NCBI GenBank assembly: GCA_023078555.1
Contig: CM041197.1
Location: forward strand, 7,472,842-7,536,841
Length of the DNA stretch: 64,000 nt
DNA from: Ulva prolifera
Taxonomy: Eukaryota > Chlorophyta > Ulvophyceae > Ulvales > Ulvaceae
Direction of reading: 5' to 3'
This document shows positions 19,059 to 64,000 of the stretch, piece after piece (position 1 is the stretch's first letter; every line of letters begins with the position of its first letter). A program made the position numbers and the translations under genes. The notes below the pieces were generated by a model. The model made no database searches, had not been told where the DNA came from, and saw nothing but the letters and a program-made list of their open reading frames with translations.

Positions 19059-22000
19059 ATGAGCTGTGCGATCGTGAAAATGCTACGCCTTGCGAGCCTT
19101 GTCGGCTTCGTACAGATTCTCCTTCAAGCGGGCACGACCGTGGCTGATTCAGAGACTCAGACTTCAGTGTTCTGCGAACCACCACTCGCACGGACATCGG
19201 TGTGGTGCTGATCGGTTTTTTCTGGTTTGTCTCTCGCAGGTGCCTGGCTGCTTTCAGCGTCGAAGGCCATGCGTGTCTGTAAGCTTGATCTACGGTAGCG
19301 ATTGGCAACAGCTGCAGCGGCAAGTGAAGATCAGCACAAAACATTGAGCAGATCTGAGCATGCCAACGATTCCGAACTTTCCAACAGCTTGCTTACTCAG
19401 TTCAACTGTGCACCATGTGCACACACATGATCTTCGCTGCGAGCATTCCTCCCACTCGTCGGGCTGGAGTCGGCTTGCCACCAAGTTGCGTATGGCTGCT
19501 TTGACAGCACCGCTGTCTCGAGATACGTTCAGATGCTATCTCGGCGCTGAGTGTGCCACTGCTCCGTTGCTGCGCGAGTCCTGCCTCGGCTTCTGCAGCG
19601 CAGCTTGTAAACACAGGCGCACAGGCCGCAAGCGCAGGCTTGATGTGCTGCCGGAAATATTGCCCGCATCTGGTCTGCAAGTTCCAGTGTAGTTGTGGAC
19701 ACATGTGCTTGCGATCGATATTGCTGCTTGCATCAAACGAGGAGTGCATTCAGGTGTCAGACTTACGGAGCCTACTGCTTTCCGATCAACCTTCGATGAG
19801 GGCCAAGTTAGTCTTTAAACCATTCTGCCGTATATCGTTCTTGGTATATCCTTCAAGCTGCGGGTTGACCTGTCACCGACACCAGCGCGGTGGACGCAGG
19901 ACGCACGGGCACCTCATGTCGAGTTTTGCAAATTCGCATCCCCGAGATGATTCATGTTTCGACTCATGTCCTCACAGTTCGTTTATTCGCAGAACGTCGG
20001 GCTCCAGCGTGTCCTGCTCTTGATGCCGCGGGGTCCCTGCGCAGACGGCAGTGCCTCACGGCACTCTGGATCTGTCAGCAGAACCGCAGGACGAGTAAAC
20101 CTGATCACCACTACAAGCTATAATACGAGTGAGTGAGTCTGCAGCTTTTATATTCACGTTTCGAATGCCACAATTCGGGTTTCAGTGGTGTGCATCAGTG
20201 TCTTATGACGTGTACGTGCAACAAGGGTGCCCGGTACAGGCGGCGAACGAGCAGCTTGACAGCGATACCAATGTAACTACTTTCTGTGGGCAATTGAAGA
20301 CAAGTTGCTGTGCAGGCCTGTTCGTGGACCGGAGATTGCCCAGTCGGCGGTTGCAAAGACAAGTGCACGGTGAACCACTTCGTCACTAATAGCTTTGATG
20401 TGCTGTTGGACAGAAATATGGGAGAAGACTCCTACGGAGCCTGCCCCCTCCTGGCCCACTGGGTCAACTTCATACTTGACAGCAGCAGTGGCCGGCGTCG
20501 CAGCCTGTTATCACAGAGTGTATGCCCCTGCTTCCACCCCATGCCTGCATCAAGTCCACGCTGTTGGCTGGTGGATTCTTTATGGTGGACGAGCCTGCAT
20601 TCCTGTTGGCTTCAGCAGCTGGAAGCTTGTCAGGTCTTCGTTCTGTACGCAAGGCATGGATTCGAGCAGGCATGGTAGCCTGGCAAAAAAACAGTTGCTC
20701 CGCGAAGTGTGTGTCTGCTGCAGTAGTGGATGCCATGAGTGCTGTTTTCAGAGACATGGCGGCAGTGTGGCATACCCATGCTACCATGCTGCAGCTTGCG
20801 GAAGCTCGTGCTCTCTTGACATTGTTAGAGAAATACATCATGACATATAGCATGGGGAATAGGGATGATGTACCTGTGAAAGGCCAAGTGCATTCTGGGT
20901 GCCACACCCTCTCGTCCTGCTGAGGGTACCACCGGCAGGTGGCGGCTTCAGCTTGCACATCCTCACGTTTATGACATGCCACAGCGTGCAGGATGTGTGG
21001 GAGTCTGCCCGCGAAAGCAGCATCCCGCCGCATGAGCTGTCAGAGCTGATACGACGTGCGACCGCTGCTGTGAGCAGCAGTGTTGATGACCCTCTGGAGG
21101 TGCAGCACCGCCAGATTCTTGACCTCGCAGCCGAGGCTCCCGGCCCCGCTGGTGAAGAGATGCAGCTACCAAGCAATGTGCGGCCATCTTGCAGCCACGG
21201 CATGCCTGGTTGCAGCCACGCCTGCTGCACCACACTTCTGTCGGCCTGCCACCGTCGACTCGTGCCCGGGAGTGAGCATGCAATCGCTGCCAGTGGCCCT
21301 CAGCAGCTCTGGCCAGCTGCGGCTGTGCCACACGCTGTGAAGAGGCGAGCAGCTGCATTCAGGACAAGCCAACATTGTATGCTGCAGGCAGGTCAAATTA
21401 CCGTGGCACCTAGGTGCAGCTGTGGCACAGGCCTTGACTGTATGCCGGTGTCAACACGAGCGCCTCTGCAGGATCGGTGCTGTGGTTCTACGTCGCAAAG
21501 TGCACTGCATGGCAGTGAGTGTAAGTGCACTGCATGGCAATGAGTGCACTGCATGGCACGAGTGTAAGTGCACTGCATGGCATGAGTGCATGAGTGTGCG
21601 TGCAGAGATGCCCGACCGCAGACGACATTGAATCTGTTCAAGCTATCATGCGTGATTTGGGCGCAGACTGGCGGCTTGTGTTTGAGATCAATGCAAGAGG
21701 TGCGCTTCGCAGCCCTCCGCAATGTTCAGCTGCTGCATGTACGCCTCAGCGGTCATGCACCTGCAGTGGACGGTGCACCGCGCATGAGCGGCCGTGTCAC
21801 TTCAGGTCATGACACTCAGCAGACTGCTGTAGCCGTTCTGGCCCTGAGCTGGGGTGTAGCATGTGTACGTGTTGGCTGCACTGAGACGCTGGCGCAGTGC
21901 GTGCGTACCAGACGCCGCCTCCCTGACACCCGGCACATACAGCGTCGGCAGCTGCTCAGTGTGAGCTGCCACAGCCGCTGCATGTTTGCTCCACCGCGTC

Positions 22001-23807
22001 GCACTTAGCAATGTTGCCCTGCACTCAGACGTGTCTCGACGTCTAGACCTAGAGACACACTGCAGCTGCAGTGTGTCGGCCGGGTGACAACTTTTGAAAG
22101 ACTCCTGATAACGCTTGCACATGAGTTTGCGTCATTGCAGGCATTTGTGCCACGGCAGACGTCATGCAGAATGGCCCTTTGCTGCAGCAATGCCAGTGGC
22201 TGCAGTTACACCGATGTCATGAAGTGCATAGATCGGGGCCCTGGGGTCGCCACGGCCACATCACACCCCGCCTACGCTGCTGCCCGCCGCGCTGCCTTTA
22301 CCTTTGTACCACTCTGCCAGTACGCTGACACGCTCCTCGGGCGGACTTTGTGCAGGGGAGGAGATTCCGGCGGACCTCGATGTCGCTGCGGACTTGGTAC
22401 TACCAAAACCCAACACATACCAGTTCCTACTGCAGATGCTGGAGGACCCCGACGGCGTGGTGGAGTACATGTCTTCACGGTGTGTGGACAGGGTGGTGAA
22501 AGGAGTCGCGGTCGTCTTCTTCTTTGAGTACCTCCTCCTAGACCAGGCCCGCCTGCTGTTGAACGTAGAGGGTGATGTCAGGCTGATGCAGTGCACTGAC
22601 AACTTTGGCGCCTTGGACGACCTGCTCGGGTGCGTTGTCTTGGCCGGTTCAGCTTGCACCGTGCGCCATGAATCGGCTTTGGTGGCACTGGATTGGATGG
22701 CATGAAGGTGCTGCTGATGGGAGGGCTCTTCTTCTTGTTCTTTGTCAAACCTGTGCAAAAAGGCGCTGTAGAAACTACAGCGTAGAGTCTACAGTGTAGA
22801 TGCTGCCGCCTCGCCGTGCCACACATGCATCAGCTGCCACCGATCGAATGGCACTCTCATGCCATACACCAACGCTGCGGCATGAAGCGCAGCATGAGCT
22901 GCTGTCGCTTGAGAAGTGGAGGAATGCATGTGAGGTTATGCGGTCCCATGTGTAGGAAGTTTGGCGCCATGCTGGTAGCTTGCAACCCGCCGTTCGACCA
23001 GACGCCCGACTGCCACAGCCCTGAGTCCCTCAAGATCATCTCATCCCCCGCTTGTGCAGATGCATATGGCCAGATGTTCAACGTCTCTGCTGCAACCCTT
23101 GTGAACATCTCCAGCAATACCCAAGCTATCAACACCGCCTGCAACGACATCACAGTGGAGGTGTGACCTGCAGCCGTGTGCCTGTGTAAGCCATCGGCGC
23201 CAACACCTCGAGGCGTGCCCTTCGTGTGGGTGCACCAGTACGCCCCGCGCGCAGTGAGCGGCTCTGCACGATTCTGTGTGTGGCAATACACTGCTCATCA
23301 TGTATGTATGCCAAGTCAACAGAAAATATTACCAGCGAGTTCAAGTAACACATGACACGAGCATGCTCTCATCAGCGCGCGGGGTGTTGAAAGTGTAGGC
23401 GTCAAGGTGTCGATGCATGCCTGCAGGCGGAATGCACATCGGCCCAGACCCCAGCACTTGGAGAAATCGTCGAGCTCCATGACACCATCCCTATTCGCAA
23501 TGCCATTGACGTTCCTACAGTATCAGTTGCACCGGGGCAAGCAGAGCCTCCAGAGATCGTCGTGTGCTTCACGGAGCCTTGCGAGCCGCCGAGCGGGGCT
23601 GGTGGGCCCAGCGGGGACGATTACGTGGTTCTGGCACAGGCCCCCAGATCAGCTGTGCCAGGTCCGCCCGCAGGAAGCGTCCCTGATACATCGCCGGATA
23701 CCGGGGATCCAGCTGAAGACGAAACCCCCTCTGCTGTTACCTTTGTGGTGAAACATGTCGTCGCAGCGATCGCCACTGCAGGTGCATTTATTGTGTTGCT
23801 CGGATGA
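19059..23807 (+). CDS. Gene A: cysteine-rich receptor-like protein, ends at hydrophobic C-terminus, no kinase
   Basis: This is a multi-exon secreted or membrane protein, paralogous to gene B. Exon 1 (ATG 19059 or 19080, to 19199) encodes a signal peptide (MLRLASLVGFVQILLQAG) then ETQTSVFCEPP. Later exons with clear splice sites and matches in B are: near 20150-20210 (SNATIRVSVVC), 20316 to about 20517 (ACSWTGDC, VLLDRNMGEDSYGACP), 20992-21177, 22356-22629 (YQFLLQMLEDPDGV, CTDNFGALDD), 22956-23160 (ACNPPFDQTPDC) and 23427-23807. A possible exon with CRMALCCSNASGC lies near 22141-22240. Intron phases match B exactly at the resolved junctions. The last exon is Pro/Asp-rich, then VVKHVVAAIATAGAFIVLLG and stop: a hydrophobic tail with no cytoplasmic part, as in GPI-anchored or tail-anchored proteins, or a truncated receptor. 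No kinase exon is seen before 25.5 kb. Exons between 19200 and 20150 and around 20520-20990 and 21200-22140 are unresolved. Confidence 0.7.
21497..21592. repeat. Short tandem array of AGTGCACTGCATGGCA
   Basis: Four copies of AGTGCACTGCATGGCA, separated by variable GAGTG(TA) linkers, lie in an apparent intron of gene A. Copy spacing alternates, suggesting slippage. Nothing indicates coding. Confidence 0.85.
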
Positions 23808-24477
23808 TCTGGGGTGCAATAGTCACTGACTGGAGGTGTTGTCACTGCCCGTCCCGCTGCGGGTGTCAGTGGTTTAGCAGTGTTTCGCTTCCAACGGCTG
23901 ATGTGTGCTTCATACTTTGGGTCCCTGCATGCTACGACCTGGAGCTCTGCAGGACAGTGCCAGTGTGCAGACCACGAGCCCTGCAGGCACGCCGATTCTG
24001 TTGATGTGTACATGCCCAACCTTCCGCCCAATTACTTCCCCACATTGAAGCGCATTCGAAACAGACAATATGCATAGTATGTTGTGTTGTCTCCACCGCC
24101 GATATTGTAAGGTAAATTGTAAAGAGTGGCGGAGGGGTGGACTGAGGGTCTGTTGCAGCACTGTGTCACCCCGCACGTGCATTGTTCCGCTATAGCAGCC
24201 TGCGCCAAAGCCTTCGTCTAGTATGCCATGGTCTGCAGCAGCTTTACATCGCTAGACCCTATCATCCCCCCGACCGTCAATGTACATCCGGCTGCCTGCA
24301 CTCAGTTGTCTTCTCCATGTGTCAGTTTTCATCGCGTTGACACTCACGTCATGAGACTGACGACAATGGCATGACTACCTGCCCTGCAGGCTTGACTGTC
24401 AACTCAGCTTACTTAAATCCACACCAAGATCACTGTAGTCTTTCAAAATCACAGCCGAACTTCTGCGGACGCTTGCT

Positions 24478-24479
<2 letters not shown>
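23808..24479. other. No gene supported downstream of gene A
   Basis: I searched here for a kinase-like continuation of gene A (glycine loop, AIK, HRD or DFG motifs) and saw none. Short open frames exist without domains. Confidence 0.5.
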
Positions 24480-25486
<1,007 letters not shown>

Positions 25487-27374: not shown

Positions 27375-27382
27375 ACACGGAC

Positions 27383-28380: not shown

Positions 28381-28437
28381 GCATCAAGCAGTATACAATT
28401 TCATGAACATGACTAGCCACGCGGTACGCACCGACCT

Positions 28438-42916: not shown

Positions 42917-42953
<37 letters not shown>

Positions 42954-47007: not shown

Positions 47008-47362
47008 TGTCACAATGCATGAGCCTGCGGGCAGCAGTGTGGTGACAGGTGCACCCATGCACGAACGATCCGCGGATCCAGTGTAGGGGTAAGCCGCCAG
47101 CTAGGATCGTCTCGATGTAGTGAGAGAGATCGTGCGAGGGTTTCCCGCCGTAACCTTGAGTGTTGAGTGTTCAGTGTGCATATAAGCATGTGCACACTGA
47201 GATCTGTAACCATTCTCATTACTGTCTTACGGTATTAGCACTCTCCTCGCAGCATCTCTCGGTTCTACCTCTGTGCGCAGCAGGTACGAGATGCTGGCTG
47301 CCCTGACCTGACTTGAACGAGGACTGCGCGTCCGCCCTGCACATATGATAGCTTTTCTGACA
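47008..47362 (+). repeat. 5' LTR of the Copia element
   Basis: 355 bp, TG...CA ended, with a TATA-like CATATAAG near 47179, consistent with a promoter in the LTR. It is identical by eye to 53244-53598. Confidence 0.96.
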
Positions 47363-47667
47363 TGGTATCGATGAAGTTAGCGCTATGTCTGTTTATGGTC
47401 TTGTTCAGGAAGCCGTCGGCCAATGTCTGCGCGCAGACACGGCGGGCATTCCACTGTTCTGCCGGCGCTCAGACTGCGGTCAAAAGCGCAGGCATCATTT
47501 AGCTCTCTCGTAGCATATTGTTGTTAGACACAATTCGAGAAGCTTGTTTTAATGATCAGCGCTGAGAAAAGCGAACGCGTTCGCTTGTTCTCTCAACCTG
47601 TTTGCTTGCGAGCAATCCCACTGGTTAGTTGCTGCGCGCGACAAACAACCATCTGTCCTGATGCAGG

Positions 47668-50600
47668 ATGTCTCTCTCGAACTCCAACGCCAACGCCAAC
47701 TCTCCTCGCGAGGAGAGGCGTGACGATGCTGAACAGCAGCCTCTCGTCGACAGGGACGCTGACCAGCAGCTCCCTGACGGAGAACAGCCTGCGGGTATGT
47801 TGCTCCGGGGCGGACGGATTGTCCGGCCACGACCCTCTTCCCACACTGGGCAGAGTAGCCAGCAGGTGCCTATTTCCTCTCATGTTGTGAACGATCCTGG
47901 TCACACTGAGTCACTCATATCACTCGAGACGTTAACCGAGGCGCTGCGCGCATCTCGGGGGCGTAGCGAACCTGATTTGACTAAAGGGAAATTGCCTGAT
48001 TGGAATTACAAGACTGAAAGTTTCGTTGCGTACGAACAGAAAGTCTTTTTGTGGTTAGGTCAATTCGAGTTAGACCATTTGTTGCAGCACGCACCGTCTG
48101 CGGACGAACAGCGTGTTCATGCTAGGGCGAGGACACAGGTCCTAATGTCTTTGCCTGACGCGGATAGGACGACTGTCTATCGCATGTCACACTTGTGTGA
48201 AGCATGGTCTTACTTGACTGCCAAGTATAGACCTAGCACTGAAGCCGAGATCCACAGACTGTGGAGTCGGTTCAATTCTTTGTCACAACACAATAAAGAT
48301 GTCGCGACATATTGTGGTGAGGTGATGAGTGTTTACACTCAACTGGAGGCACTAGGTGCCGATGTGGGCCAGCGATGGCTTCGATTGAAACTGTTAGAGG
48401 TGGGGGAAGAGTTCAACGCTGTGCGCGGCGAAGTTCAACACTCCTCCCCTCATGTGATAATAGCCCGTTTGACTGAGCATGCTGATTTGCTCAAACAACA
48501 GCGGTCGCTGCAGGCTAGGTCTGGGACGCCCGCGGGCAAACCAGGCCATGGCTGGCGCAAGCAGCACCGTGGTGACGGCCCTGTGGTCGCTGCTCTCGCA
48601 GCTGGCCAGGCTCCTCGCGAGGAGACCAGGACCTGTTTCTTCTGCAAGAAGAAGGGACATTTGCGTGCGAACTGCCCCCAACGCAAACAAGCTGCGGCCA
48701 GAGATGTTTGCACTATTGAAATGCCTGCCAAGTACCCACAGCCGGACGCGTCCATGCCGTGGAACATCATTGTTGATAGTGGGTCGGACATGCATATAGT
48801 AGGAAATCGGGAAATGTTCACTGAGTACGGCCCGTGTCAGAAAGTTGCCAATCTCGCGGGACCAGGGCAGCTTTCTATCATGGGTAGGGGAACCATTCAG
48901 GTGAACCTGGGTGCTTATGTGGACAAGCATGGGAACACGCACCCACTGGATGTGGAAATCCCGGGTGTTTACTATGCTCCTGAATGTCCGTACAACCTGC
49001 TCAGCACGATGGGTCTTAGATCAGAGCAGATGTTCCTAGACACGCGTAGGAATGTGTTATATGTCCCTGGTCTGGGTGATATGGCTACCGGCGTAGAGGA
49101 TAACGTCAAATTTCAGGAACTAGATGTAGACGGTCATCCTGTTTTTGCTTTTAAAATGGCGGTAGATACGAAACCCATTCTCGTCGGTGCGCCTGTCAAT
49201 AGGGGGGTAGTCTGGTCTAACCAGAGCAGTCCGACCTCAGTTGTTGAGGATCAACAGCAGTGGCATCATGTGGCGGTTGCGGCCATTGACCTGAAGCGAC
49301 CCAATGCAGGGGGAGCTGAGGTCCCATATGATGCATACTTGCTGGAACCTGCTTTTATAGCACATTTGTCTTTCCACCAATCAAATTGGGTCCTCAAGCG
49401 CATGCAATCTAACAGTGACTTTTATGGTCATTTGAATTTGGATGTCGATTCCGAGCCACTAGGGAATCGATGTCACGGCTGCAGAATTGGCAAAGTGCCT
49501 GCGGGCAAGTTTTCTGCCAATGATCGTGAGCTCATGGGCCAGGCCAAGTGGCCTGGTGAGCAACTGCACGCCGACTTAGCTGGTCCTGTCTCTCCGGTAG
49601 GAATTGGTGGTGTGAAATATGTTTTGTTTGTGATGTGTGCCTTTACCCGTTATACTTTCGTGGTAGGTCTGCGCAAAAAGAGTGAGGCTGCGGCCATGAT
49701 CTCTTATATTATCGAACGCATTCGGGTGAATGTGGTGAAGCCAGGTGAACCGGGTTTGCGCATCCTACACACCGACAAAGGGGGAGAGTTTATGGTCGCG
49801 GCCTTAAAGCTCTACCTCCAGCGTCGTGGCATAACTCACCGCTTGACCCCCACAGCCGCTCATCGCTGTAATGGCATGATCGAGAGGAGGATCGGAGTGG
49901 CCTTTGAGTCACTCCGTGCTGTGCTGCTCGCGAGCGGCCTGCCTCTGTTCCTGTGGATAGAATGCCTCGCCAGCGTTGTCCATGGCCACAATCTCACGCC
50001 ATCATCGGCATTGTACCATGACAAACTGGCGAGTATCCTCAAGGGCCTGAAAGCTCAGCATGCTGTCAATGCGTCTGCGGACGTTGACGAAGCTGAAAAG
50101 AGCCTGGGGAAGGGTAAGCGTATGAAAAAGGCCGAGCGCGATAAGTTGAGGGATGAGGAGAAACGCAAGTACAAGTTGCTTGCGACAACAGAATTAGATG
50201 AGTTTTTAGTGCGGTCTTGTGATAAGGATGTCATTCCTTATATGGCCTTTTTCCGAGACACCTCCGTTGAGGTGTTCCAAGATCTGCTGCGGCAGCAGCG
50301 TCCATGGGGGGTTGAAGTGTATGCATACCCTAGGGATGACAAGCTGCGGAAGTTGTCCCCGCGGGGTGTGCCTGCATACTGGGTCGGGGCTGGGTTAGGC
50401 CCCAGCATGCAGCGTGTGTACGCCCAGGACGTTCCTGGGGGTAGGGTTTTTGTTATGCGTCAGGTGATGTGCACCGCGGATCAGATGATCCGGCACGTAC
50501 GCAAGTACGATGCGTCCGCCGTTGTGGACAAGAGGGAACCTGAGGAGTTTGCGAACTCCTATACGGTTGCTTTCGAGGGGGACGATGAGGGTGAGCGTGT

Positions 50601-53226
50601 GACTGACGCAGATGTCCCTCCTTTCGCGGCGGAGCACACGTATGATGGGGGAGTGTTGCGCCGTCTGCGTGACCAGCTTCACACCCCCCCTGGTCATGGT
50701 AGGGTTCCTGTCATGGAAATGACATTCCGGCAGGACAACCCTGACCCTGATCCTACTGCGTACTCTCCACGATTTGGAGCTGGCTCCTCTGCGGAGGTTA
50801 TCCGACGTGACCCTGCTAGGGCAACGCCGGAAATAGCCAGAACAGCTTTGCATCGCACGCGTGCAATGTCCAGAGCTGCTGCTCAACCTGCCGTCCCTGC
50901 TCCCCCTCGTGTTCCCGGCGAAGTGTATCATCCTGTCGCCACGCCCTCTCGCACCGCGCGGTATGTTGTTACGCGCAATGCTGTGTTGCACGACCCTGGT
51001 GTAGAAGTTGCGCTCCCCATTCGAATGTCTGTCAGTGCGTCTGATGACGACATGGAGGATCCGTCCGATGATGACAGTCCTGGCATCTATGACGACGATG
51101 ACGAACAGCGCATGGACTACACCGTCTCAGATGATGAAAGAGCTGCGGCTCATCAGCATCTGGAGGCTCAGCGGGTCCGCTCTGGGAGTAATTCGGCAGC
51201 GGCCTCAGCATCTGGCGCGGGGGCAGTTGCTCAGCCCTTGCGAGGAGCTGAGGCGCCGAGGCCCTTCTGGGAGGATGAGCCAGATGAGGTGGAGACCGGG
51301 TCCGAATTAGGGGGAGAGGATCCGGACCCCTCAGCCGCGGTTGGGGTTGATTTGCCCGACGAGGTGAGGGCCATTCCAGCTGCCTTACCCCGTATTAAAA
51401 TCAATCCTCTTGTACGCAGACGCCTTGTTCCATTGGCTGCGGATGTAGCAGCTGTACAAATGCATGAGCCTGCGGGCTCTGACATTGCTAGTAGTAAGAC
51501 AGTTGAAGTTGCTATTGATGTTTCAGCTTGCGATCAGGACACATCAGCCGCGGCTGACTGTGGAGTGTCCTGTGCAGGCCTGAAGCCTCAGCATGTGGGG
51601 TCTGGCGAGCAGCAGAATGCTCAGCGTCATGGGTCGCGCAGAGCAGCTGCCGCCAGGAAGCAGAAGCCTTCCGACCCTGATCTGCCTTCTATGAAGGAAG
51701 GACTCGCGGGTCCAGACAGGGATGCGTGGCTGCGTGCCATGCAAGAGGAGGTAGATGCACTGGGTGAGCACGGAACCTTCGGGTTGTGCTATCTGCCTGC
51801 GGGCAAACGGGCTATCTCGGGCAAATGGGTGCTCAAGATCAAGCGTGGGCCTGCTGGTGAGATTCAGCGGTACAAGGCACGATATGTAGCTCGTGGTTTT
51901 TCTCAGGTAGAAGGAGTAGATTTCTTTGAGACATGGTCCCCTGTCGGTAGTTATGCGACGCTGCGGTTGTTGCTGTCAATAGCTGCTCAGGAGGATATGG
52001 AGATTAGGCATATAGATATACAGTGTGCTTTTCTGAACGGTGACCTGGAGGAAGAGGTTTTCGTTGAACAGCCCCCGTATTTTTCAGACGGGACAGCACG
52101 TGTATGGAAATTGCATAAGACTCTGTATGGCCTGAAGCAAGCCGCTCGCGAGTGGCATAAAGCTTTAGTCAAGGTCTTGGCTGAACTGGGATTTGTGTGC
52201 GCACAGAGTGATCCCGGACTGTATGTCAGTAAAACCAATCGGTGCTTTATTTTTCTGTGGGTGGATGACTTATTTATTTTCAGTTGCTCTGCGGGGCTGC
52301 AGGAAATAATCACTGTTATTCTCACAAAATTTGAAGGCAGAGATTTAGGTGACCTGTCTTGGGCACTTGGCACTGAGATCACGCGTGATCGAAAAGCCAA
52401 AACAATCACAATGACACAACGTAACAAGATCCAGAACTTGCTGGAAAAGTACAGCATGTCTGACTGTCGTAAATCTCCCACTCCATTAGTGCCGCGGCAA
52501 CAACTAAGGAGTGTGAAAGAGCATCCTGACCTGGAGAAAGCCAGTGCTGCTGAGCATTCCAGGTTCATGAGTGCTGTAGGAAGCATCCAGTACATTGCAG
52601 GAGTGACACGACCTGACCTGAGCTACGTGGCACATGCCCTGGCCCGGCACATGTCTAGTAGTCTGAAGGAACACTGGTCTGCCGTGCAACACGTTCTGAG
52701 ATACCTACAGTCCACGAAAAATCTAGGAATAAAATTTGTAGGCTCTGAGGGACATGGGTGTTTGCTAGAAGCTTTTTCAGATGCAGATTTTGCGAACTCT
52801 GCTGATCTGAAAAGCGTGTCTGGTATGATTATTCGAGTGTATGGGAACTCTGTTCTCTGGCGTTCGAAGAAGCAGAGTATAGTGGCTGGGGATACAACAG
52901 AGGCTGAACTCATCGCGATGAGTGCAACAGCCAACGAGTTGATGTGGGTGAAGCAGTTGCTTCTCGATTTGAAACTCGTCCCACATAAGCCGACTCTGTG
53001 GGGTGACAATAAGAGTGCCAATATCTTGGCTGTGAATGCTGTGTCCACTGACAGATCCAAGCACATTCGTGTGCGGCACTTGCGAGCGCGGGAATATGTC
53101 CAGATGGATGAACTTAAGGTAGCATGGGTCGGCACTGTCGATCAGGTAGCAGATGTGTTTACTAAAGTGCTGCCCGGACCTGCCTTGAAAGAAGTTCGTA
53201 ATAAACTCCAGCTAGTGGAGACTTAG
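47668..53226 (+). CDS. Copia gag-pol polyprotein
   Basis: One 1852-codon frame. From N to C: an acidic/Gln-rich leader; a Copia-type Gag region (about residues 100-290) ending in a CCHC zinc knuckle (CFFCKKKGHLRANC); a retropepsin-type protease region (IIVDSGSDMHIVG); the integrase zinc-binding and core domains (about 560-800; HTDKGGEFMVAALK); a long acidic, low-complexity linker (about 960-1330); the Copia reverse transcriptase (about 1350-1600; the block with LHKTLYGLKQAAREWHKAL); and RNase H to the end (VAGDTTEAELIAMSATANEL). The length is at the upper end for Copia because of the linker. The ATG at 47668 is the first of the frame, 306 bp after the 5' LTR. The frame is open throughout. Confidence 0.96.
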   Translation: MSLSNSNANANSPREERRDDAEQQPLVDRDADQQLPDGEQPAGMLLRGGRIVRPRPSSHTGQSSQQVPISSHVVNDPGHTESLISLETLTEALRASRGRSEPDLTKGKLPDWNYKTESFVAYEQKVFLWLGQFELDHLLQHAPSADEQRVHARARTQVLMSLPDADRTTVYRMSHLCEAWSYLTAKYRPSTEAEIHRLWSRFNSLSQHNKDVATYCGEVMSVYTQLEALGADVGQRWLRLKLLEVGEEFNAVRGEVQHSSPHVIIARLTEHADLLKQQRSLQARSGTPAGKPGHGWRKQHRGDGPVVAALAAGQAPREETRTCFFCKKKGHLRANCPQRKQAAARDVCTIEMPAKYPQPDASMPWNIIVDSGSDMHIVGNREMFTEYGPCQKVANLAGPGQLSIMGRGTIQVNLGAYVDKHGNTHPLDVEIPGVYYAPECPYNLLSTMGLRSEQMFLDTRRNVLYVPGLGDMATGVEDNVKFQELDVDGHPVFAFKMAVDTKPILVGAPVNRGVVWSNQSSPTSVVEDQQQWHHVAVAAIDLKRPNAGGAEVPYDAYLLEPAFIAHLSFHQSNWVLKRMQSNSDFYGHLNLDVDSEPLGNRCHGCRIGKVPAGKFSANDRELMGQAKWPGEQLHADLAGPVSPVGIGGVKYVLFVMCAFTRYTFVVGLRKKSEAAAMISYIIERIRVNVVKPGEPGLRILHTDKGGEFMVAALKLYLQRRGITHRLTPTAAHRCNGMIERRIGVAFESLRAVLLASGLPLFLWIECLASVVHGHNLTPSSALYHDKLASILKGLKAQHAVNASADVDEAEKSLGKGKRMKKAERDKLRDEEKRKYKLLATTELDEFLVRSCDKDVIPYMAFFRDTSVEVFQDLLRQQRPWGVEVYAYPRDDKLRKLSPRGVPAYWVGAGLGPSMQRVYAQDVPGGRVFVMRQVMCTADQMIRHVRKYDASAVVDKREPEEFANSYTVAFEGDDEGERVTDADVPPFAAEHTYDGGVLRRLRDQLHTPPGHGRVPVMEMTFRQDNPDPDPTAYSPRFGAGSSAEVIRRDPARATPEIARTALHRTRAMSRAAAQPAVPAPPRVPGEVYHPVATPSRTARYVVTRNAVLHDPGVEVALPIRMSVSASDDDMEDPSDDDSPGIYDDDDEQRMDYTVSDDERAAAHQHLEAQRVRSGSNSAAASASGAGAVAQPLRGAEAPRPFWEDEPDEVETGSELGGEDPDPSAAVGVDLPDEVRAIPAALPRIKINPLVRRRLVPLAADVAAVQMHEPAGSDIASSKTVEVAIDVSACDQDTSAAADCGVSCAGLKPQHVGSGEQQNAQRHGSRRAAAARKQKPSDPDLPSMKEGLAGPDRDAWLRAMQEEVDALGEHGTFGLCYLPAGKRAISGKWVLKIKRGPAGEIQRYKARYVARGFSQVEGVDFFETWSPVGSYATLRLLLSIAAQEDMEIRHIDIQCAFLNGDLEEEVFVEQPPYFSDGTARVWKLHKTLYGLKQAAREWHKALVKVLAELGFVCAQSDPGLYVSKTNRCFIFLWVDDLFIFSCSAGLQEIITVILTKFEGRDLGDLSWALGTEITRDRKAKTITMTQRNKIQNLLEKYSMSDCRKSPTPLVPRQQLRSVKEHPDLEKASAAEHSRFMSAVGSIQYIAGVTRPDLSYVAHALARHMSSSLKEHWSAVQHVLRYLQSTKNLGIKFVGSEGHGCLLEAFSDADFANSADLKSVSGMIIRVYGNSVLWRSKKQSIVAGDTTEAELIAMSATANELMWVKQLLLDLKLVPHKPTLWGDNKSANILAVNAVSTDRSKHIRVRHLRAREYVQMDELKVAWVGTVDQVADVFTKVLPGPALKEVRNKLQLVET

Positions 53227-53243
53227 CAGGGTTTATGGGGGAG

Positions 53244-53598
53244 TGTCACAATGCATGAGCCTGCGGGCAGCAGTGTGGTGACAGGTGCACCCATGCACGA
53301 ACGATCCGCGGATCCAGTGTAGGGGTAAGCCGCCAGCTAGGATCGTCTCGATGTAGTGAGAGAGATCGTGCGAGGGTTTCCCGCCGTAACCTTGAGTGTT
53401 GAGTGTTCAGTGTGCATATAAGCATGTGCACACTGAGATCTGTAACCATTCTCATTACTGTCTTACGGTATTAGCACTCTCCTCGCAGCATCTCTCGGTT
53501 CTACCTCTGTGCGCAGCAGGTACGAGATGCTGGCTGCCCTGACCTGACTTGAACGAGGACTGCGCGTCCGCCCTGCACATATGATAGCTTTTCTGACA
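53244..53598 (+). repeat. 3' LTR of the Copia element
   Basis: 355 bp, identical by eye to the 5' LTR, directly after the purine tract TTTATGGGGGAG that follows the polyprotein stop. Confidence 0.96.
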
Positions 53599-55730: not shown

Positions 55731-55816
55731 GAGCCTGTGAAGAGTGTGGTCCTGTGTTTTTCCACAAGCCTCAGCACTGCTTCGACGGCAACCTGCCGAT
55801 CGTCAAGGCCAATCTT

Positions 55817-55939
55817 CCTGCCGGACTGAGTTGTGAGTGCGGTTGTAGTGTTCGTGTGTGTGTGAGTGTATGTTGCAGTTGATTCGGATGAGATTCGGTT
55901 TCAGTATTTGTTTTCTCCCGTTCACTCTTTTGTAATATA
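55817..55939 (+). mobile_element. Short TGTAA-ending retroposon, 14-bp target duplication
   Basis: A 123-bp insert is flanked by TCAAGGCCAATCTT at 55803-55816 and 55940-55953. It begins CCTGCCGGACTGAGTTGTGA and ends CACTCTTTTGTAATATA. It is homologous to the inserts at 17292-17426 (opposite strand) and 16598-16674. The frame on either side is continuous (LPIVKANL before, GVAESRKDI after), so it seems to have entered a coding exon just upstream of the gene B signal peptide. Confidence 0.9.
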
Positions 55940-56010
55940 TCAAGGCCAATCTTGGTGTCGCCGAGTCCAGGAAAGACATCCTTGTGTACAGTGAGCACGT
56001 CGCGTCGGCC

Positions 56011-59000
56011 ATGCGTCGGCTTTCGGGTAACGTCATAGCATGCTTCATCGCGTACTTTCTGCTCCAAGCGTACATGTACAGGCCTGCTGCCGACTCAGCA
56101 GTCCAGACTCAAAGCGCTTTCTGCCAGCCAGTGCCTTCAGAAACATCGGTGCGGGCCTGAGTACCATCGGCAGCAGCCGTAGAGTGCAGCAAACGCTGGC
56201 GTGAGCATTGACTGTGCTCTGCTCTCGCCTTGCATTCGTTGCATGTGAGCCGCTTGCAGTGAATCTGCTATGCTGCACGGATCATATCGACATGATCGCC
56301 TGTATCAACATCCAGTGCCTAGGCTCTCGAATTACTATGTGTGCGTATGTTTGGGATAAGTACACCCTGCATGTACGTTGTGGTCGTTGAGCTTCAAGTG
56401 TAAATGAATCTGCACGCCAAGCCGTGGCCGCTTCACTAGGGTCGATGATCCCAGCCTGTTGAGCATCGACTTAATCCAACATTTTTCTTGGCTGTTCCAG
56501 CTTCGATGTTTCATTCTTGGTTCTTCGTGACCTGCTGCACAGGCGACGCTCAGGTTCTCACAACATGAGCTGCACAGCGTGTGTCAACAACCAGGCCGCG
56601 CGCCTCTGACTGCGCGAAGCTGCTAAATGTGAACGCATCTTTCTATTACAGCTAGCGCTGGCTGCATCGACGGTGGGTACGTTGGTCTCCGGCACAACCC
56701 CGCGCAGTGAGTTGCGGCATGCATATGCGGGCGGATTCGCATGCTGTAGGAAACATCACGCTGGAAGTCGCAGTATTCTGCTTGAAATATCCTGTGAAAT
56801 GCCGTCCATTTGTGAGTGCGGCTTGTCAGCCGTGTTGTGCATGCAGTGGATGTCTCCATCTTCTTGGTCGCCCCCAGTCGCTCCCGCTTCCAACTCACCA
56901 ACATGGTGCTGCTTAGCTCGATTTATCTTACTCATAGGAGGCCTTTTGCAGGCTTGCTCGTGGACGGATGCTTGCAAGGTTGCTGGGTGTGCAGGCAAGT
57001 GTGTAGCAAATGAAGGCCTGACTTCCAGCTGGGATGTGCTGCTGGACAGAGCCGCAGGAGAGGACTCATATGATGCGTGTCCCATGTTTGCTTTCTGGAT
57101 CAACCAGTGGTACACAACATACGAGGGCACTGGCCGTCGCCTCCAGTCTGCAAAAGTACGCCCTGGCATGCTACAGCTGTCTGCTAAATGATACAGCAAG
57201 AATGTACAAGTGCACAGTGCATGTATTTCACAGCTCCCAGGTGGCCCGGGAGCATGCCAAGGTGACAGTGCTCTTCTGGAGCAAGCTGTGTGCTCACCAT
57301 GCTGACCGTCAACGTTGGTACCTGCCATATCATCTCTCCTGTGTAGCACATGTTCAGTGGGATTGGAGGCATGGTCTTTTGACATCATCCTGTCACTGAA
57401 CATGGATGGATGAGGCTACAATCATAGGCATGCCATGAGACTGTACGAGCTCGCTCCAGTCATGAGGCCTGCAGACTGCTGCAGACGTTGCATCGTCACA
57501 ATCAATGCACATGCGCTGCTGTGGTTTAGCAATCGGAATTCGCACCTACTCTCCCAAGCCTCCAACCGGAGTTGTCTACGAGGCTGGAAGCGCCTGCTTC
57601 CAGCTGCGTACGCTGCAGGCACTGCATTGCGCTCCCCTCTTCTATTTGTCTGAAGCGGGGCAATACTGCCAATTTCAGTCTCCCCTGCACCTAGATGTGA
57701 GTGGCCTGTGCGCCTGCTGCATACAGTGACGAGCTGTGCAGGAGCCTGCAGAGTTCCTCAGAAATGAAACACTGTCAGCCCCAAGGCACGCGGGGCTTCG
57801 CGGCCAGCACCGCCGCATGCAAGAGCTCACGGCCGAAGGCCCATCACCTGTCGACGATGACCTCCCAACAAATGTGAGGCCCTGCACCGTCTGCATGCCG
57901 TGTTGCACGCTGACCTGGACTACTGTAGCTCCGCCCTGCAGCCGGTGTGCCTGCATATCAACAAGCATTGGGTTCAGATCATGCTTCGTTGTGCCTCCTG
58001 GCGCCGTCCTGTTGTGGTGAACCCGGCACGGTAAGCCACGCTTCCATCTATGGATTGTGTGAGGGACGCCCCTCCGGCACCTGCGCTGCGGTAGCGCGCC
58101 CAGGCGCTGTGTCTCCAACTGCCACTCAATTCCGCTGTGATATTTGCTGTGAATGTAGGTTGTGGTGCATAGCTCCGTGTTGTATTGTGCATATGTATAT
58201 GCTTCTGTAGAGAGAGCAGCCTGACTCCATTTCGGGCAGTCGAGGTCTGCCCGTGAGAGCATGCGCTGCGACATTCGCGGAACTCAATGTCTCACCATGT
58301 GGAGGACTAATGCTGACTTCCATCGCTGAGGATGTTGTTCAATCATTCTTTCATGGTGGCTTGCCATGGTCCTGCAAATGTGGGCCGTGATCGATGCGGT
58401 GCCCATTTAATGAACGTCAGACAGGAGGCCTGTGCAGCGCTGCCCAACAAGAGAAGAAGGCGAGATCACCCAGTTCACATTCGGCCTTGCAGCAACCCAC
58501 GGGCGGCACGTGTTCGAGGGTGATGCTCGCGGTGCGGTGTTGGGCCAAGTGTTTTATTCGGTGATTTCAGAAGTGCATGCTCGTCTGGACTTGCAGCATC
58601 ATTGACCCCTGCACGATGGCTGCAGCAGCGGTAGGCTGAAGACCCCGCTTCTAGCCATGTAGTTGTTGGCGTGGGGGTCTGCATGTTGTCTGGCTTCCGA
58701 ACGTTGGTGGACCGCTGCTATCTGTCATTGACACTGCTGTTGGGCACATCGCCAGCTTTGCGGCGGTGCATGTGGCCCTGTGGCGTAGAGAACTCATCTG
58801 TGCGCTGTGTCAGTCTTTGCAAGCACTCTAAGATGCAAAAGGTTGTCGCGTTGCGTGTACTTGGCGAGGTCGTGGAGCATTTTCAAAGGTGTACATCAAA
58901 TCTGTCGCATGTTTCTCGTGTTTGGGCTTGCGGGCAGGCCTTTGCACATGCTTCGCGGGCAGGGCGTCCAGGATGCGTAAACGTCAGTGGGCCTCAAATT

Positions 59001-62000
59001 GACGGGGCGTTGCATGCTGCAGGCGAGACGATTTCTGCTGAATTCGATACATCAACCCGGTTCCTAGAGCAACCCAACCGATACCAATTCTTCATCTCCA
59101 TGCTTGAGGACCCCAAAAGGCTTCTGGACTATATGGCGGCAAACTGTTCAACTTCTCTGGTGCAGGGGGATGACAGCCAGTTATTTCTACAGTATCTGGA
59201 GCCCGAGCAGCTCAGCAAGATCGACTTTGCCTCGGGCGGAAGGATGATCCAGTGTGTGGACAATTTCGGTGCCTTGGAAAGGGTCTCCAGGTAACGCAGC
59301 CTCACCTCCCACTGACCTCTCACCCCGCACGCGCTGGCCTTGGCCAACTACTGCTACCTGATTGAGATCAGTGAGTTCGCCGGCATGGTGACTCATGTGT
59401 TGACAGCATACCTGCCCCTTTCGTTCGCGAGAGCGGCCTGCTAGGAGCTAAAGCACACCTTAGCCGTGTACTGTCATACGGTGGCATGTAGCACAGAGCT
59501 CTGTGGCAATCCAGTGATATGGCCGCTATACCACTGGATCCTTGCACGTCGCGACGTGCAAGGATCCAGTGGTATAGCGGCCATATCACTGGATTGCCAC
59601 AAAAGCTGGGTCCTCTGAGATCTGAGGCTGGCCAGTCCTCCAGCTCCCCCGGTCCGTTTCAGCATCGATCCGACCACTGCCTCTCTGGACTTACGCTGGT
59701 CCCGTGATCCTATGCCCCACTTAACGCGACACGAGTGGCCGCGACCTGACTGTGCAAGGCGGGTGTCGAACTACCGACCTCACGAACCCAACTTTTGTGG
59801 CAATCCAGTGATATGGCCGCTATACCACTGGATCCTTGCACGTCGCGACGTGCAAGGATCCAGTGGTATAGCGGCCATATCACTGGATTGCCACAAAAGC
59901 TGGATCCTCTGAGATCTGAGGCTGGCCAGTCCTCCAGCTCCCCCGGTCCGTTTCAGCATCGATCCGACCACTGCCTCTCTGGACTGACGCTGGTCCCGTG
60001 ATCCTATGCCCCACTTAACGCGACACGAGTGGCAGCGACCTGACTGTGCAAGGCGGGTGTCGAACTACCGACCTCACGAACCAAACTTTTGTGGCAATCC
60101 AGTGATATGGCCGCTATACCACTGGATCCTTGCACGTCGCGACGTGCAAGGATCCAGTGGTATAGCGGCCATATCACTGGATTGCTACAAGCTCCCCAGG
60201 TACGTACAGAGCGCGGCAGGCCATGATGTTCCCATGAGCAGGGCAGCCCCCTGCCTGTGGCATGCCTTGGCACATGGCAAATATCACAACGAACATGTCT
60301 GGACTCATCATCTAGACAGGGCGCTGGGTTACCGGCGTGCACAGGGCCATCCGACCGTTCGTTTGCGCACGTTCACTGCCGCCATGGCCCCACCAGTTCC
60401 CTGGAAGATCGGAGCTGTTTCCCTGAATGTCAAAGGCAGCGTGCTGTCGACAGGGCCCACTCAACCCGTGGCCTGCTGGGCTTCTGACGTGCCTTGTGTG
60501 TGCACGGCTGGGCCGATGACGGCCCACTGGTGCTGTGCAGCGGTAGGGAGCAAGTGACCGAGGCGTGTGTCCCACCGTTCGGGGAGACACCCAACTGCTT
60601 CTCCTCCTCAAGCCACACGATGGTGTCCACTGCAAACTGCGTGGCAGCGTACGATGCCATGTTTGACGTCTCAGACCTCGCAACCCTTGGCAGCATCGCC
60701 GACAATGCCGGCGCGGTGCATGCGGCCTGCTCCCAGGCGGCGTCGCAGGTGTGCACTGCTGCATGCCGAGCCCACACACCTGCACCTCCGCTCTTGTCAC
60801 TTCCCCTGGACAGCACTAGCGGCCTGTCGTCGTCAACGTCTTCCTCGGCAGTGCTGTCTGCTTGTCGGGGAGGCCCTCTTGTTCTGCAGCTTTTGGCTCG
60901 TCATCATATAGCGACTCGCCGTCTCTGAGGCTAAGTCCTGTATCGCCGTGTTGTTCCGTCTCACACTTCAAGAAGTACAGCAATGTGAAACCAACATGTA
61001 GTCAAACTTGACTGGCCCGTACTGGCATCAGGATGTCGTGCCCATGACATGAACCCCAGCTGGAAAGGCGGCATGCAGTCGATGTTGGCTTAGGCTTCCA
61101 GTGAGCAAGAAGTGCTGCGTGCAGGCGGAATGTGGGGCGATCAGGACGCCAGCTCTTGCAGCTATTGCAACTGTCCATGACAGCATCCCGGTGCGCTACG
61201 CGCTCGAACTACGGCAACCATCCGCGGCATTAAACGCCACCGGCGGGCCAGCCCCGGACGTCTGCTTCAATCCTCCATGCGAGGCGCCTGCCCCTGCCCC
61301 AGGCCCCCTGCCGGAAGAAACCCCAGGCCCGGGGCCAACACAAAAAGAGCCTGAGCCAGGCACCGACAGCGTGGGGGAGGATGCTGTCGTGTCAGGCGCT
61401 CGGTTGATTGCAAACCCGCCGCTGGAGGTGCCTCCCCCTGAGTCAACCGATGGAGGGGTCAATGTCGCTGCAGCTGCTGGCGCTTCCGCAGCCGTGGTGC
61501 TGGGTCTGTTGTTAGCGGCCGTTGTTGCCTACCGCATGAAGCAGAAGAAGGACAGAACAGAGGTGCGCGCCCTTCTGATGCCATGTGTGGCTGTTGCACT
61601 CAGGGCCAAAGACGTCTGATGTGGCCTGAGCTCGGGAGGCTCGAGTCTGCTGCTCGCTGCGTGCGCTCACACGTGGCTGCCGGGACACATCATCACATTG
61701 CGCTGTTTGTTGAGGGATTCCGCCCTACATCGGAAGCGAGGTTGCTGAGCAGGGGGCACATGCATGGCCATGAGGCGTAAATCGCTGCAGTTTACGGAGC
61801 ACCATGAGCATCATCTGAGCATGAACACAGAGTGATTCAATGGCACATCGCCGTTGCCGCAGGTTGGACACAAATTGCCCTTCCAGGGGGCGTGCAGCCG
61901 GCAGTAGCTCACTCGGCAAGTTGTCCGTACGCCATCATGCATTGCAACGATGTACACAAGATTCTTCACTCGGGCCTTGACTTCCGACAGCTTCAGCATC

Positions 62001-64000
62001 CATGTGCCAATGTTGATCATCAGCAGAGTTGCATTGAAACGTTTTGACATATGAAATATTAATGTAAAAAACGCGTTTGAAACGTTTCTATCAAAATTCT
62101 TGCACAATAAGAAACGTTGTGTGGGTATAAAAGCACCTGGGCGCCGGAGGCGCCCAGCCTCGTTTCTCCCAGTAGAAGGGAACAGCGTCCTGTGCAATCC
62201 AAGGGATGCCACACACCATACAATATTTTATTACACTTGCAGCGAGTGTTCACTGTGCAATGATGATATGACATGTGCTGGACTGTTCCTCACAGCACAG
62301 GCCTGCAGGCCTAGCGCTAGGGGTGCATCAGGATCCCGGTACGCATGGAGCCATTGGCGCGTGGCTACGGGTGCCGCGTAGTGCGAATCTGTTTGGACCT
62401 CCTGAAAACGATCAGTCCCGGCGTGCCAGCGTTTCATACGTTGATAAGAAACGTTAATATAAGAAACGCGATTGAAACGTTTCTTGTCGAATGAAACGCG
62501 TTTCAATGCAACTCTGATCATCGGAATCCTTCTCGTTTGTAGGCTGACTTCGGCAAAGGAGGAGGTGCAAGAGGGACAGATGTTGGGCCTGGGCCAGCAC
62601 AAGGAGGCGGATCTGCCGGCACCAAGCGCGCGGCCGACTGGGGAGCTCCGGACGGCAAGATCGCGGCCTCACATGAAAGTCCATATCGCCAGTTCCCCCC
62701 AGGACCGCCACACTTTGGCCCGCCCGGAACTCTCGCCCCCGGCCCACAACAGCAGGGTGCATACGGCCAGCAGGGGTATGGGGCTGTGCAGCCATGGGCG
62801 GCCAGGCGGTCAAGCGGATACAACGCCGCTGAGCTGCGCACGGAACCCACAGTCTCAGTCACCATTGGCTGCAACTGGACCGAGTTTGGGAAGTGCGCTC
62901 CCATCCGCACACTAGGCATGCGTGTGTTGCGTGGCATTTTCTCGTAGGGCGTGGACATAGTTCGGATGTGGCCGCAATGGAGCCTGCAGGCCTCCGTTGT
63001 CCTGCATGCGGCACTGCGATCATGCCCTTTGATCTGCAAGCTTCAGCAGTGCATGGCATTTCTGTGCATGATCCATACGTTTGCATTTCTGCAGGGCATC
63101 GAGTGAGGCTGAGACGGCACTGGACAAGCTCGAGGTGGCGCTGGACGGGATGTGCTGCATGGCGGCCCCTTTCTACGGCCAGTACCAGCTACACTCTGCC
63201 GTGCAGAGGCGGGTCGGCGGCCAGGGCATTGTCCAGTTTGCCGCGATCATGAACACACAGGACAAGGTGCGTGCTGCTTGGCTGCCAGTGAAGCACCTGC
63301 ATGCGGCACTGCGCGCTGACAGCAGCGGCCCATTGCCTCCCATACAGCCATGGGCTTTGTACCGATGCCCGCTGCCATGCAGTATTGCTGCTCCCGGATT
63401 GCTGGACCGGTTGTAGATCCCGACTCAAAGCCTCGTCCTCTGTGCATTGATGGCAAAGCGCTAGCCTGTAGATGTGTGTTGCAGCATGGCCTCCCGCCAA
63501 ATCCCCAACAGACCACTGCAATGTTCAAGAATGGGCTGTCTGTCCGCACTCTTTCAAGGAGCCTCGCACGGTGGCCGTTGGTGCAGGCAGCCATCAAGTT
63601 CTACATGGACAAGGCAGCCTTCCAGAGCGAGAGGGACCTGTACGAGGAGCCCGCGCTCAAATCAATGATGCCCGCCACCCTCGCCATCGAGGACAACGCC
63701 TCCGGGGAGCACGCCACGCCCTACGGCTACGCCTTCCCCCCGTTTGTCATCATCGAGTGCGGCCAGAGCCTCGACGAGTGGGCCCGAGACAACGCCAACA
63801 CTGACTTCATCACCATCTTCCAGGTCACCTTCCCTCCGATTGTAGCCTTTGCTTTGTTCTTGGAGCACAGATTGTCACTGCAAGATGGCCGCACCAGCAC
63901 CATAACTGCGGCAGCACCATGTTTGGTTCGGACAAGCACCTTGATGCACCATGACCGCATCTGCCTGCTTGGACACACCTGTGGCTCGACACAACAATCA
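56011..64000 (+). CDS. Gene B: receptor-like protein kinase, cysteine-rich ectodomain, 3' end outside window
   Basis: The signal-peptide exon 56011-56148 (MRRLSGNVIACFIAYFLLQA) has its donor at the same site as gene A. Ectodomain exons: one ending near 56817 (GNITLEVAVFCLK), 56952-57155 (ACSWTDACKVAGC), one ending 57699 (YEAGSACFQLRTLQALHC), 57742-57873, 59023-59290 (YQFFISMLEDPKRLLDYM), 60541-60748 (ACVPPFGETPNC). Exon 61125-61562 carries a Pro-rich stalk, one membrane helix (AAVVLGLLLAAVVAYRMKQ) and the stop-transfer KQKKDR. Exon 62543-62892 is a Gly/Pro/Gln-rich juxtamembrane tail (GPQQQGAYGQQGYGAVQPW). Exons 63095-63266 and 63587-63823 start a protein kinase: GQYQLHSAV, glycine loop GGQGIVQFA, then AIKFYMDKAAFQSERDLYEE (beta-3 Lys and helix-C Glu) and the hinge FVIIECGQSLDEWA. 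Phases of the last five junctions agree. Role inferred: cell-surface sensing. The open frame upstream (55733-56010) could add N-terminal residues; some middle exons (57900-59000) are unresolved. Confidence 0.75.
59502..60189. repeat. Three ~100-bp palindromes in a 294-bp tandem array (tRNA-like SINE arrangement)
   Basis: Near-perfect palindromes lie at 59502-59601, 59796-59895 and 60090-60189, centred on CACGTCGCGACGTG, with arms ending TGTGGCAATCCAGTG and CACTGGATTGCCACA. The period is exactly 294 bp and the 194-bp spacers are almost identical. Each arm also holds an internal inverted repeat (CCAGTG...CACTGG) around TGGTATAGCGG, an exact A-box match. The array sits in the gene B intron between 59290 and 60541. 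The high identity between units suggests recent tandem amplification. Confidence 0.92.
59750..59830 (-). repeat. tRNA-like head of a SINE-type repeat
   Basis: On the minus strand this reads an A box (TGGTATAGCGG) and, about 45 nt on, a B box (GTTCGACAC, within GGTAGTTCGACACCCGCC). Both match the polymerase III consensus with tRNA-like spacing. A second copy lies 294 bp downstream (about 60044-60124). The acceptor and anticodon stems are not convincing, so it is called tRNA-derived rather than a working tRNA gene. Confidence 0.6.
62024..62516. mobile_element. MITE with CAGAGTTGCATTG ends and 8-bp target duplication
   Basis: A 493-bp element with inverted ends CAGAGTTGCATTGAAACG is flanked by ATCATCAG at 62016-62023 and ATCATCGG at 62517-62524. 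It contains repeated GAAACGTTT and AAACGCGTTT motifs near both ends and a central hairpin CTGGGCGCCGGAGGCGCCCAG. It has no ORF. It lies in the gene B intron between the membrane exon and the juxtamembrane exon, ending 26 bp before the acceptor. Same terminal sequence as the MITE at 43388-43835. Confidence 0.9.

What the first reader, a model, noticed from the sequence alone, without database searches (positions are those of the whole stretch)
19059..64000. Same-strand receptor kinase and kinase-less paralogue with a shared cysteine-rich ectodomain
Genes A (19.06-23.81 kb) and B (56.01 kb onward) share a signal-peptide exon with the donor at the same codon and at least six ectodomain exons. Intron phases match: the MLEDP exon is phase 1 in and 2 out in both, the next exon begins in phase 2 in both, and the membrane exons both begin GCGGAATG in phase 0. 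Only B goes on to a kinase. This has the shape of a receptor-kinase and receptor-like-protein pair, known in plants but little described in algae.
Basis: partly seen in the sequence, partly recalled or inferred. Interest (0 to 1): 0.82.

Follow-up and report, generated by a model that had tools for sequence, protein, structure and literature searches.

The report
Algal receptor kinase and anchored twin
In a green-plant genome, probably an alga's, a cluster of cell-surface proteins shares one unfamiliar cysteine-rich outer part; most members look lipid-anchored, while three carry a kinase like that of differently built neighbouring receptors, which suggests modular receptor building outside the usual plant receptor-kinase family.

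Summary
Gene A (19080-23807, 7 exons, 487 aa) and gene B (56011 to 65167, 12 exons, 939 aa, ending 1.2 kb past the window) lie on the same strand. They share seven exons with identical intron phases, and only B has a kinase. Close copies upstream (A', B') keep both reading frames and splice sites.

The pair samples a larger family: 14 genes with this ectodomain were found on 0.6 Mb of contig C2. Eleven lack a kinase and end in a hydrophobic tail and stop, like a GPI-anchor signal; two of these look broken. Three (B, B', F) continue into a transmembrane helix and kinase.

The same juxtamembrane-kinase half also sits, in the same cluster, behind an unrelated repetitive ectodomain (tentatively beta-helix). 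B-type genes are best read as chimeras: the family's ectodomain on a neighbouring receptor kinase's inner half. Whether kinase gain or loss came first is not settled.

The ectodomain has no Pfam or PDB relative. The kinase keeps its catalytic motifs, but no named RLK/Pelle kinase is among its best PDB matches. It resembles plant LysM-RLK plus GPI-anchored LYM in shape; by descent it appears independent.

The parts
19080..19199 (+). Gene A exon 1: signal peptide, ends after Thr-Ser codons, phase 0 out
20316..20519 (+). Gene A exon 2: ACSWT Cys-rich exon, phase 0/0
20992..21177 (+). Gene A exon 3, phase 0/0
21606..21699 (+). Gene A exon 4 (RCPT...), phase 0/1
22356..22629 (+). Gene A exon 5 (MLEDP exon), phase 1/2
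22956..23160 (+). Gene A exon 6 (CNPPF exon), phase 2/0
23427..23807 (+). Gene A exon 7: AEC exon, Pro-rich linker, hydrophobic C-terminal tail (GPI-like) and stop
56011..56148 (+). Gene B exon 1: signal peptide
56952..57155 (+). Gene B exon 2: ACSWT exon
57742..57873 (+). Gene B exon 3
58438..58531 (+). Gene B exon 4 (RCPT), phase 0/1
59023..59290 (+). Gene B exon 5 (MLEDP), phase 1/2
60547..60748 (+). Gene B exon 6 (CVPPF), phase 2/0
61125..61562 (+). Gene B exon 7: AEC exon, Pro-rich linker, transmembrane helix, basic stop-transfer (RMKQKKDR)
62543..62892 (+). Gene B exon 8: cytoplasmic Gly/Pro-rich juxtamembrane exon; its end is also found in the receptors E1, E2 and F
63095..63266 (+). 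Gene B exon 9: kinase N-lobe, Gly-rich loop GGQGIVQFA
63587..63823 (+). Gene B exon 10: kinase AAIK lysine exon
63824..64000 (+). Start of gene B intron 10; window ends here. Exon 11 (HRD, DFG; 64195-64336 in extended window numbering) and exon 12 (APE to stop; 64725-65167) lie in L009

Best explanation
A and B belong to a tandem cluster of surface proteins built on one secreted Cys-rich ectodomain. A-type genes (A, A' and nine others, two of the eleven apparently broken) end in a GPI-type signal and would sit on the outer leaflet with no cytoplasmic part. B-type genes (B, B', F) put the same ectodomain on a transmembrane helix and a probable Ser/Thr kinase with its catalytic motifs. That inner half is the one used, in the same cluster, by receptors with an unrelated ectodomain (E1, E2). 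B-type genes therefore most likely arose by recombination within the cluster, joining the front of a GPI-type gene to the back of a neighbouring receptor-kinase gene. Proposed working: the ectodomain binds an extracellular ligand or matrix component; B signals through its kinase; A-type proteins bind the same or related ligands as co-receptors or decoys. Shown: gene structures, tails, catalytic motifs, shared halves, purifying selection on the copies. Inferred: GPI anchoring, direction of fusion, receptor and co-receptor roles.
For: Spliced A and B models with conserved copies: A/A' 0 gap columns in exons against 115 in introns; B/B' 15 gap columns in exons (exon length differences of 6, 3 and 6) against 1210 in introns. 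dN/dS 0.52 for A/A' (487 codons; Fisher p 0.003) and 0.28 for B/B' (935 codons; p 1e-13). Tails: 11 of 14 C2 genes have a 16-residue hydrophobic stretch (KD 2.17-2.77) ending 0-6 residues before the stop, with one K/R after it in one gene and none in ten; B, B' and F have 6-7 K/R right after the helix. The genome encodes the GPI-transamidase subunit Gpi16/PIG-T (E 4e-35). Gly-rich loop, AIK, HRD, DFG, APE (PPE in E1 and F) and DIWAIGV are in B, B', E1 and F. The E1/E2 inner halves match B (E1 81% over a 97-aa K2 segment; juxtamembrane exon), while the E2 region showed no match to gene C's Cys-rich ectodomain. Of 33 matches to the second ectodomain, 19 have this kinase type within 10 kb downstream on the same strand.
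Against: No RNA, protein or localisation data. GPI anchoring rests on tail shape; C7437 ends in Arg, and no GPI predictor was available. Direction of change is not settled: F and B/B' do not group in the ectodomain tree (F sits with the kinase-less C group, 76% support) and B/B' branch deepest, though B+B'+F monophyly is not rejected (AU p 0.065). The kinase tree separates B, B' and F from the rest with 88% (DNA) but only 52% (protein) support. For ectodomain exons 1-5 alone, B/B' constraint is not significant (p 0.059). Of the 106 kinase hits, 86 have neither ectodomain detected upstream, so the kinase's usual partner is only partly mapped; 14 of the 33 second-ectodomain matches have no such kinase downstream.
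Confidence: 0.6

Rival explanations
1. The kinase-bearing form is ancestral; A-type genes are truncated receptor kinases that lost the kinase and evolved a GPI-like tail.
For: B/B' branch deepest in the outgroup-rooted ectodomain tree, with 86% support for the remaining 12; truncated LRR-only paralogues of RLKs are described in plants (PMC7318236, passages).
Against: Kinase-less is the majority (11 of 14), and L036, a distant relative on another contig, also shows a tail-and-stop frame after its CC exon, though its last exon was not modelled. No K1 or K2 match downstream of A before B. The kinase family has another ectodomain in E1/E2 and many more loci. The outgroup is very distant.
Confidence: 0.25
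2. A-type proteins are ordinary single-pass membrane or secreted proteins, not GPI-anchored; the hydrophobic tail is a plain membrane anchor without a cytoplasmic domain.
For: No GPI predictor was run; C7437 ends in Arg, and basic residues lie just upstream of several tails.
Against: The 11 tails share a 16-residue hydrophobic stretch at or near the stop with almost no stop-transfer charge; GPI-transamidase subunit present.
Confidence: 0.2
3. A (or A') is a decaying gene and the cluster is mostly turnover debris from tandem duplication.
For: D is broken and the gene at 7409570 has a frameshift in its last exon; A/A' dN/dS is fairly high, 0.52.
Against: A and A' keep 487 codons, six introns and all splice sites, with no exon gap against 115 gap columns in introns; Fisher p 0.003 for constraint.
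Confidence: 0.1

Closest known systems
Plant LysM-RLK (LYK) and GPI-anchored LysM-RLP (LYM/CEBiP)
   Same: One ectodomain type used both on a kinase receptor and on GPI-anchored proteins; a review suggests independent combination of that ectodomain with an active kinase, a dead kinase or a GPI site (PMC6207691, passages).
   Different: Ectodomain here matches no Pfam family convincingly; best PDB kinase matches are not named as RLK/Pelle; genes lie in one tandem cluster.
Brassica S-locus SLG/SRK (recalled, not read)
   Same: Linked genes: kinase receptor and kinase-less protein with a shared ectodomain.
   Different: S-domain ectodomain and RLK/Pelle kinase there; SLG is secreted, and no self-incompatibility role is known here.
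Plant RLK/RLP systems (LRR-RLK, LRR-RLP, truncated paralogues; PMC7318236)
   Same: Full receptors and kinase-less relatives, with fusion, truncation and conversion as sources of variety (passages).
   Different: Different ectodomain and, as far as tested, a different kinase type; kinase-less form is the majority here.
Chlorophyte RLKs (about 4 in Chlamydomonas, 1 in Ulva mutabilis; PMC10868138)
   Same: Kinases in green algae counted as receptors.
   Different: I take those counts to concern RLK/Pelle (my reading of the passages); this genome has 106 K2-exon matches of what looks like another kinase type.
Brown-algal receptor kinases
   Same: Reported as an independent origin of receptor kinases in an algal lineage (PMC8307928, passages).
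   Different: LRR ectodomains, and a different lineage.

Membership tests
Plant RLK/Pelle receptor-like kinase | Signal peptide, ectodomain, single TM helix, cytoplasmic kinase | tested here: met
   Gene B model; Pkinase E 2.6e-24; TM with basic stop-transfer. Signal peptide judged by eye.
Plant RLK/Pelle receptor-like kinase | Kinase domain of the RLK/Pelle lineage | tested here: inconclusive
   PDB: 60 of 1373 matches shown for the single sequence (DMPK, MELK, GSK3, CHK2, PknA and others), 60 of 61 for the profile (GSK3, DMPK, MRCK, MELK and others); none is named as a plant RLK or IRAK, one entry is named only as a Ser/Thr kinase. Pkinase 90.3 bits against PK_Tyr_Ser-Thr 37.5. Evidence against membership, but no kinase tree with RLK/Pelle references was built.
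Receptor-like protein (kinase-less paralogue of a receptor kinase) | Shares the ectodomain and lacks the kinase | tested here: met
   Seven shared exons; no K1/K2 match between A and B.
GPI-anchored protein | C-terminal hydrophobic signal ending at or near the stop, no cytoplasmic tail | tested here: met
   11 of 14 C2 genes plus L036; by hydropathy only.
GPI-anchored protein | Actual GPI attachment | not testable with these tools
   Gpi16/PIG-T gene present; no biochemistry.
LysM-RLK / LYM | LysM domains in the ectodomain | tested here: not met
   Five ectodomains scanned against Pfam: six families at E up to 1, best E 0.037, none of them LysM.
Active protein kinase | Gly-loop, VAIK Lys, HRD Asp, DFG Asp, APE | tested here: met
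   All in B and B'; E1 and F have them too, with PPE in place of APE. Activity not tested.
Right-handed beta-helix (for the neighbours E1/E2) | Pfam Beta_helix match | tested here: inconclusive
   PF13229 E 0.028, 14.5 bits against a cut-off of 25.9, on one concatenated E1 sequence.

The most novel reading that the evidence does not exclude
A green-plant lineage outside the land plants, probably an alga, built its own modular receptor system from parts other than RLK/Pelle: one kinase half is swapped among unrelated ectodomains inside a tandem cluster, while GPI-anchored copies of the same ectodomain serve as co-receptors or decoys, as in immune or self-recognition loci.
Probability: 0.3. Interest if true: 0.78.

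Novelty: new variant of a known kind. Interest (0 to 1): 0.55.

Why it matters
RLK counts in green algae report a handful per genome (PMC10868138, passages). A receptor-kinase set built on another kinase type would be missed by counts that look for RLK/Pelle. The cluster also catches receptor assembly in progress: the GPI form (C, A'), a kinase-donor type (E1) and the chimera (B') lie within about 40 kb, and A/A' and B/B' are young copies (dS about 0.11-0.12), so the order of events could be tested with a few related genomes.

Tried and rejected
Pfam and PDB searches with the ectodomain, single and as a profile: nothing convincing. Plastid PsaA/PsaB search to place the organism: none in the assembly. 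Pherophorin search: no hit, but no control rang either, so uninformative. LHC (38 matches) and SBP (9 matches at E 0.001) fit a photosynthetic green plant; that SBP is confined to green plants is recalled. I considered that the kinase 8-10 kb downstream of gene C belongs to C; rejected, because C ends in a tail and stop and that kinase has its own ectodomain exons and helix. I considered B and F as separate fusions; open. Patchy DNA identity between the B and E1 kinase exons (75, 93, 88, 79% for K1-K4) may reflect gene conversion; not tested.
Full report
1. Check of the observation. The window is C2:7472842-7536841 of an 88.9 Mb genome in 44 contigs. That genome has 38 LHC matches and 9 SBP-domain matches, so it is a photosynthetic green plant, most likely an alga; the species is unknown. 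Gene A assembles from 7 exons into a 487-aa frame and gene B from 12 exons into a 939-aa frame, all introns GT-AG. The HRD/DFG exons of B lie beyond the window end.

2. Conserved copies. A' (-22482 to -17714 in window numbering) and B' (-9860 to -1301) repeat both genes: a 5.6 kb block at 90.7% DNA identity for A, and four long blocks at 88.7-92.8% plus a short upstream one at 83% for B. The copies give intact frames, the same phases and GT-AG splice sites at the same places. A/A' has no gap in exons and 115 gap columns in introns; B/B' has 15 exon gap columns (length differences of 6, 3 and 6) and 1210 in introns, which include a repeat insertion in B. dN/dS is 0.52 for A/A' and 0.28 for B/B', both below 1 (Fisher p 0.003 and 1e-13); ectodomain exons 1-5 of B/B' alone give p 0.059. 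The two duplications are of similar age (dS 0.109 and 0.120), but between A and B no long sequence shared with the A'-B' interval was found, so one clean block duplication is not shown.

3. A family, not a pair. A genome search with B's MLEDP exon gave 17 matches at E up to 1, 13 of them at E 1.1e-12 or better, all on C2 between 7.35 and 7.95 Mb. The ACSWT exon gave 26 matches with the same core, and A's AEC exon 14. With D (seen by its AEC exon) there are 14 C2 genes. Three weaker MLEDP relatives lie on C3 and C4 (E 3e-4). Reading the last exon of each of the 14: eleven end in a hydrophobic tail and stop; three (B, B', F) continue to a helix and kinase exons. Among the eleven, D is broken and lacks a detectable MLEDP exon, and the gene at 7409570 has a frameshift in its last exon. 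Of the kinase-less genes only A and A' were modelled from end to end; the others were read exon by exon. F (7840392) is placed by its AEC exon, a separate helix exon, juxtamembrane exon and kinase exons in order; its splicing was not modelled in full. The relative L036 also has a tail and stop frame; L037 and L038 were not read to their tails.

4. Tails. In the eleven kinase-less genes the best 16-residue hydrophobic stretch (KD 2.17-2.77) ends 0-6 residues before the stop, with one K/R after it in one case and none in ten; in B, B' and F 6-7 K/R follow the helix. That is the form of a GPI signal against a stop-transfer helix. The GPI-transamidase subunit gene is present.

5. The kinase half. 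Pfam Pkinase matches B at 2.6e-24. Gly-loop, Lys, HRD, DFG and APE motifs are in place. The PDB matches shown (60 of 1373 for the single sequence, 60 of 61 for a 5-member profile) are DMPK, MELK, GSK3, CHK2, MRCK, PknA and the like; none is named as a plant RLK or IRAK, and one is named only as a Ser/Thr kinase. This argues against RLK/Pelle membership but is not a tree.

6. The same kinase on another ectodomain. The kinases at -25.8 to -24.0 kb (E1) and 7419152 (E2) have their own ectodomain exons, conserved between them (55-71% identity in three exons), and E1 a different helix; they share the juxtamembrane and kinase exons with B. Gene C, upstream of E1, ends in tail and stop. The E2 region shows no match to C's ectodomain. 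The E-type ectodomain has only a sub-threshold Beta_helix match (E 0.028). Genome-wide, the K2 kinase exon has 106 matches (24 at 67% identity or more) and one E-type ectodomain exon 33; 17 of the 106 have that exon within 10 kb upstream on the same strand, and 19 of the 33 have the kinase downstream, three of these sharing one kinase. Of the other 89 kinase matches, three (B, B', F) have only the Cys-rich ectodomain and 86 have neither detected. One further kinase locus (L057) shows several hydrophobic open-frame segments upstream instead; it was not modelled.

7. Trees. Ectodomain: A, A' and D group (100%), the C group 98%, F with the C group 76%, B with B' 96% and deepest; forcing B, B' and F together costs 10.6 log units and is not rejected (AU p 0.065). 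The outgroup is very distant. Kinase: B, B' and F are separated from E1, E2 and the others with 88% (DNA) and 52% (protein) support. B and F helices look alike by eye. One fusion ancestral to B and F is plausible, not proven.

8. How it most likely works. The ectodomain has 15 cysteines invariant in five aligned members and follows a signal peptide (by eye); no convincing Pfam or PDB relative was found. By analogy with LYM/LYK (PMC6207691, passages), A-type proteins would bind ligand at the outer leaflet and B-type would transduce. This is inference.

9. Literature. In searches no listed title or abstract start described such a cluster in algae; of these I saw listings only, and only open-licence PMC papers are held. 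One review, seen in passages, states that more than half of analysed chlorophytes have RLKs, in small numbers (PMC10868138).

Noticed in passing
window 47008-53598: Copia-type LTR retroelement with a long open frame (RVT_2 E 1e-56) and 355-bp terminal repeats that are 100% identical, so probably a very recent insertion between A and B.
   Followed up: partly
window 8484-11837 (-): 1118-aa open frame with a reverse-transcriptase domain (RVT_1 E 8e-11), perhaps LINE-like, in the GC-rich part of the window.
   Followed up: no
window 59502-60190: Repeated palindromic elements in a B intron, absent at that spot from B'.
   Followed up: no
window 13850-16916 and 80792-83108: Duplicated block (86-94% DNA identity) of unknown content, one copy upstream of A and one downstream of B.
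   Followed up: no
L009, minus strand, about 67700-69353 in window numbering: Another kinase of the same broad type on the opposite strand just after B (41% over K2; 46% over the last kinase exon).
   Followed up: no
C4:6.34-6.72 Mb and C7:0.56-0.73 Mb: Further clusters of this kinase type, ectodomains mostly unknown.
   Followed up: partly
window about 24480-24755: Long simple repeats, (CAGG)n/(CGGG)n then (CA)n, just after gene A.
   Followed up: no
B exons at 63095-63266 and 63587-63823 and the two beyond the window, against E1: DNA identity to the E1 kinase varies sharply by exon (75, 93, 88, 79%), as gene conversion would give.
   Followed up: partly
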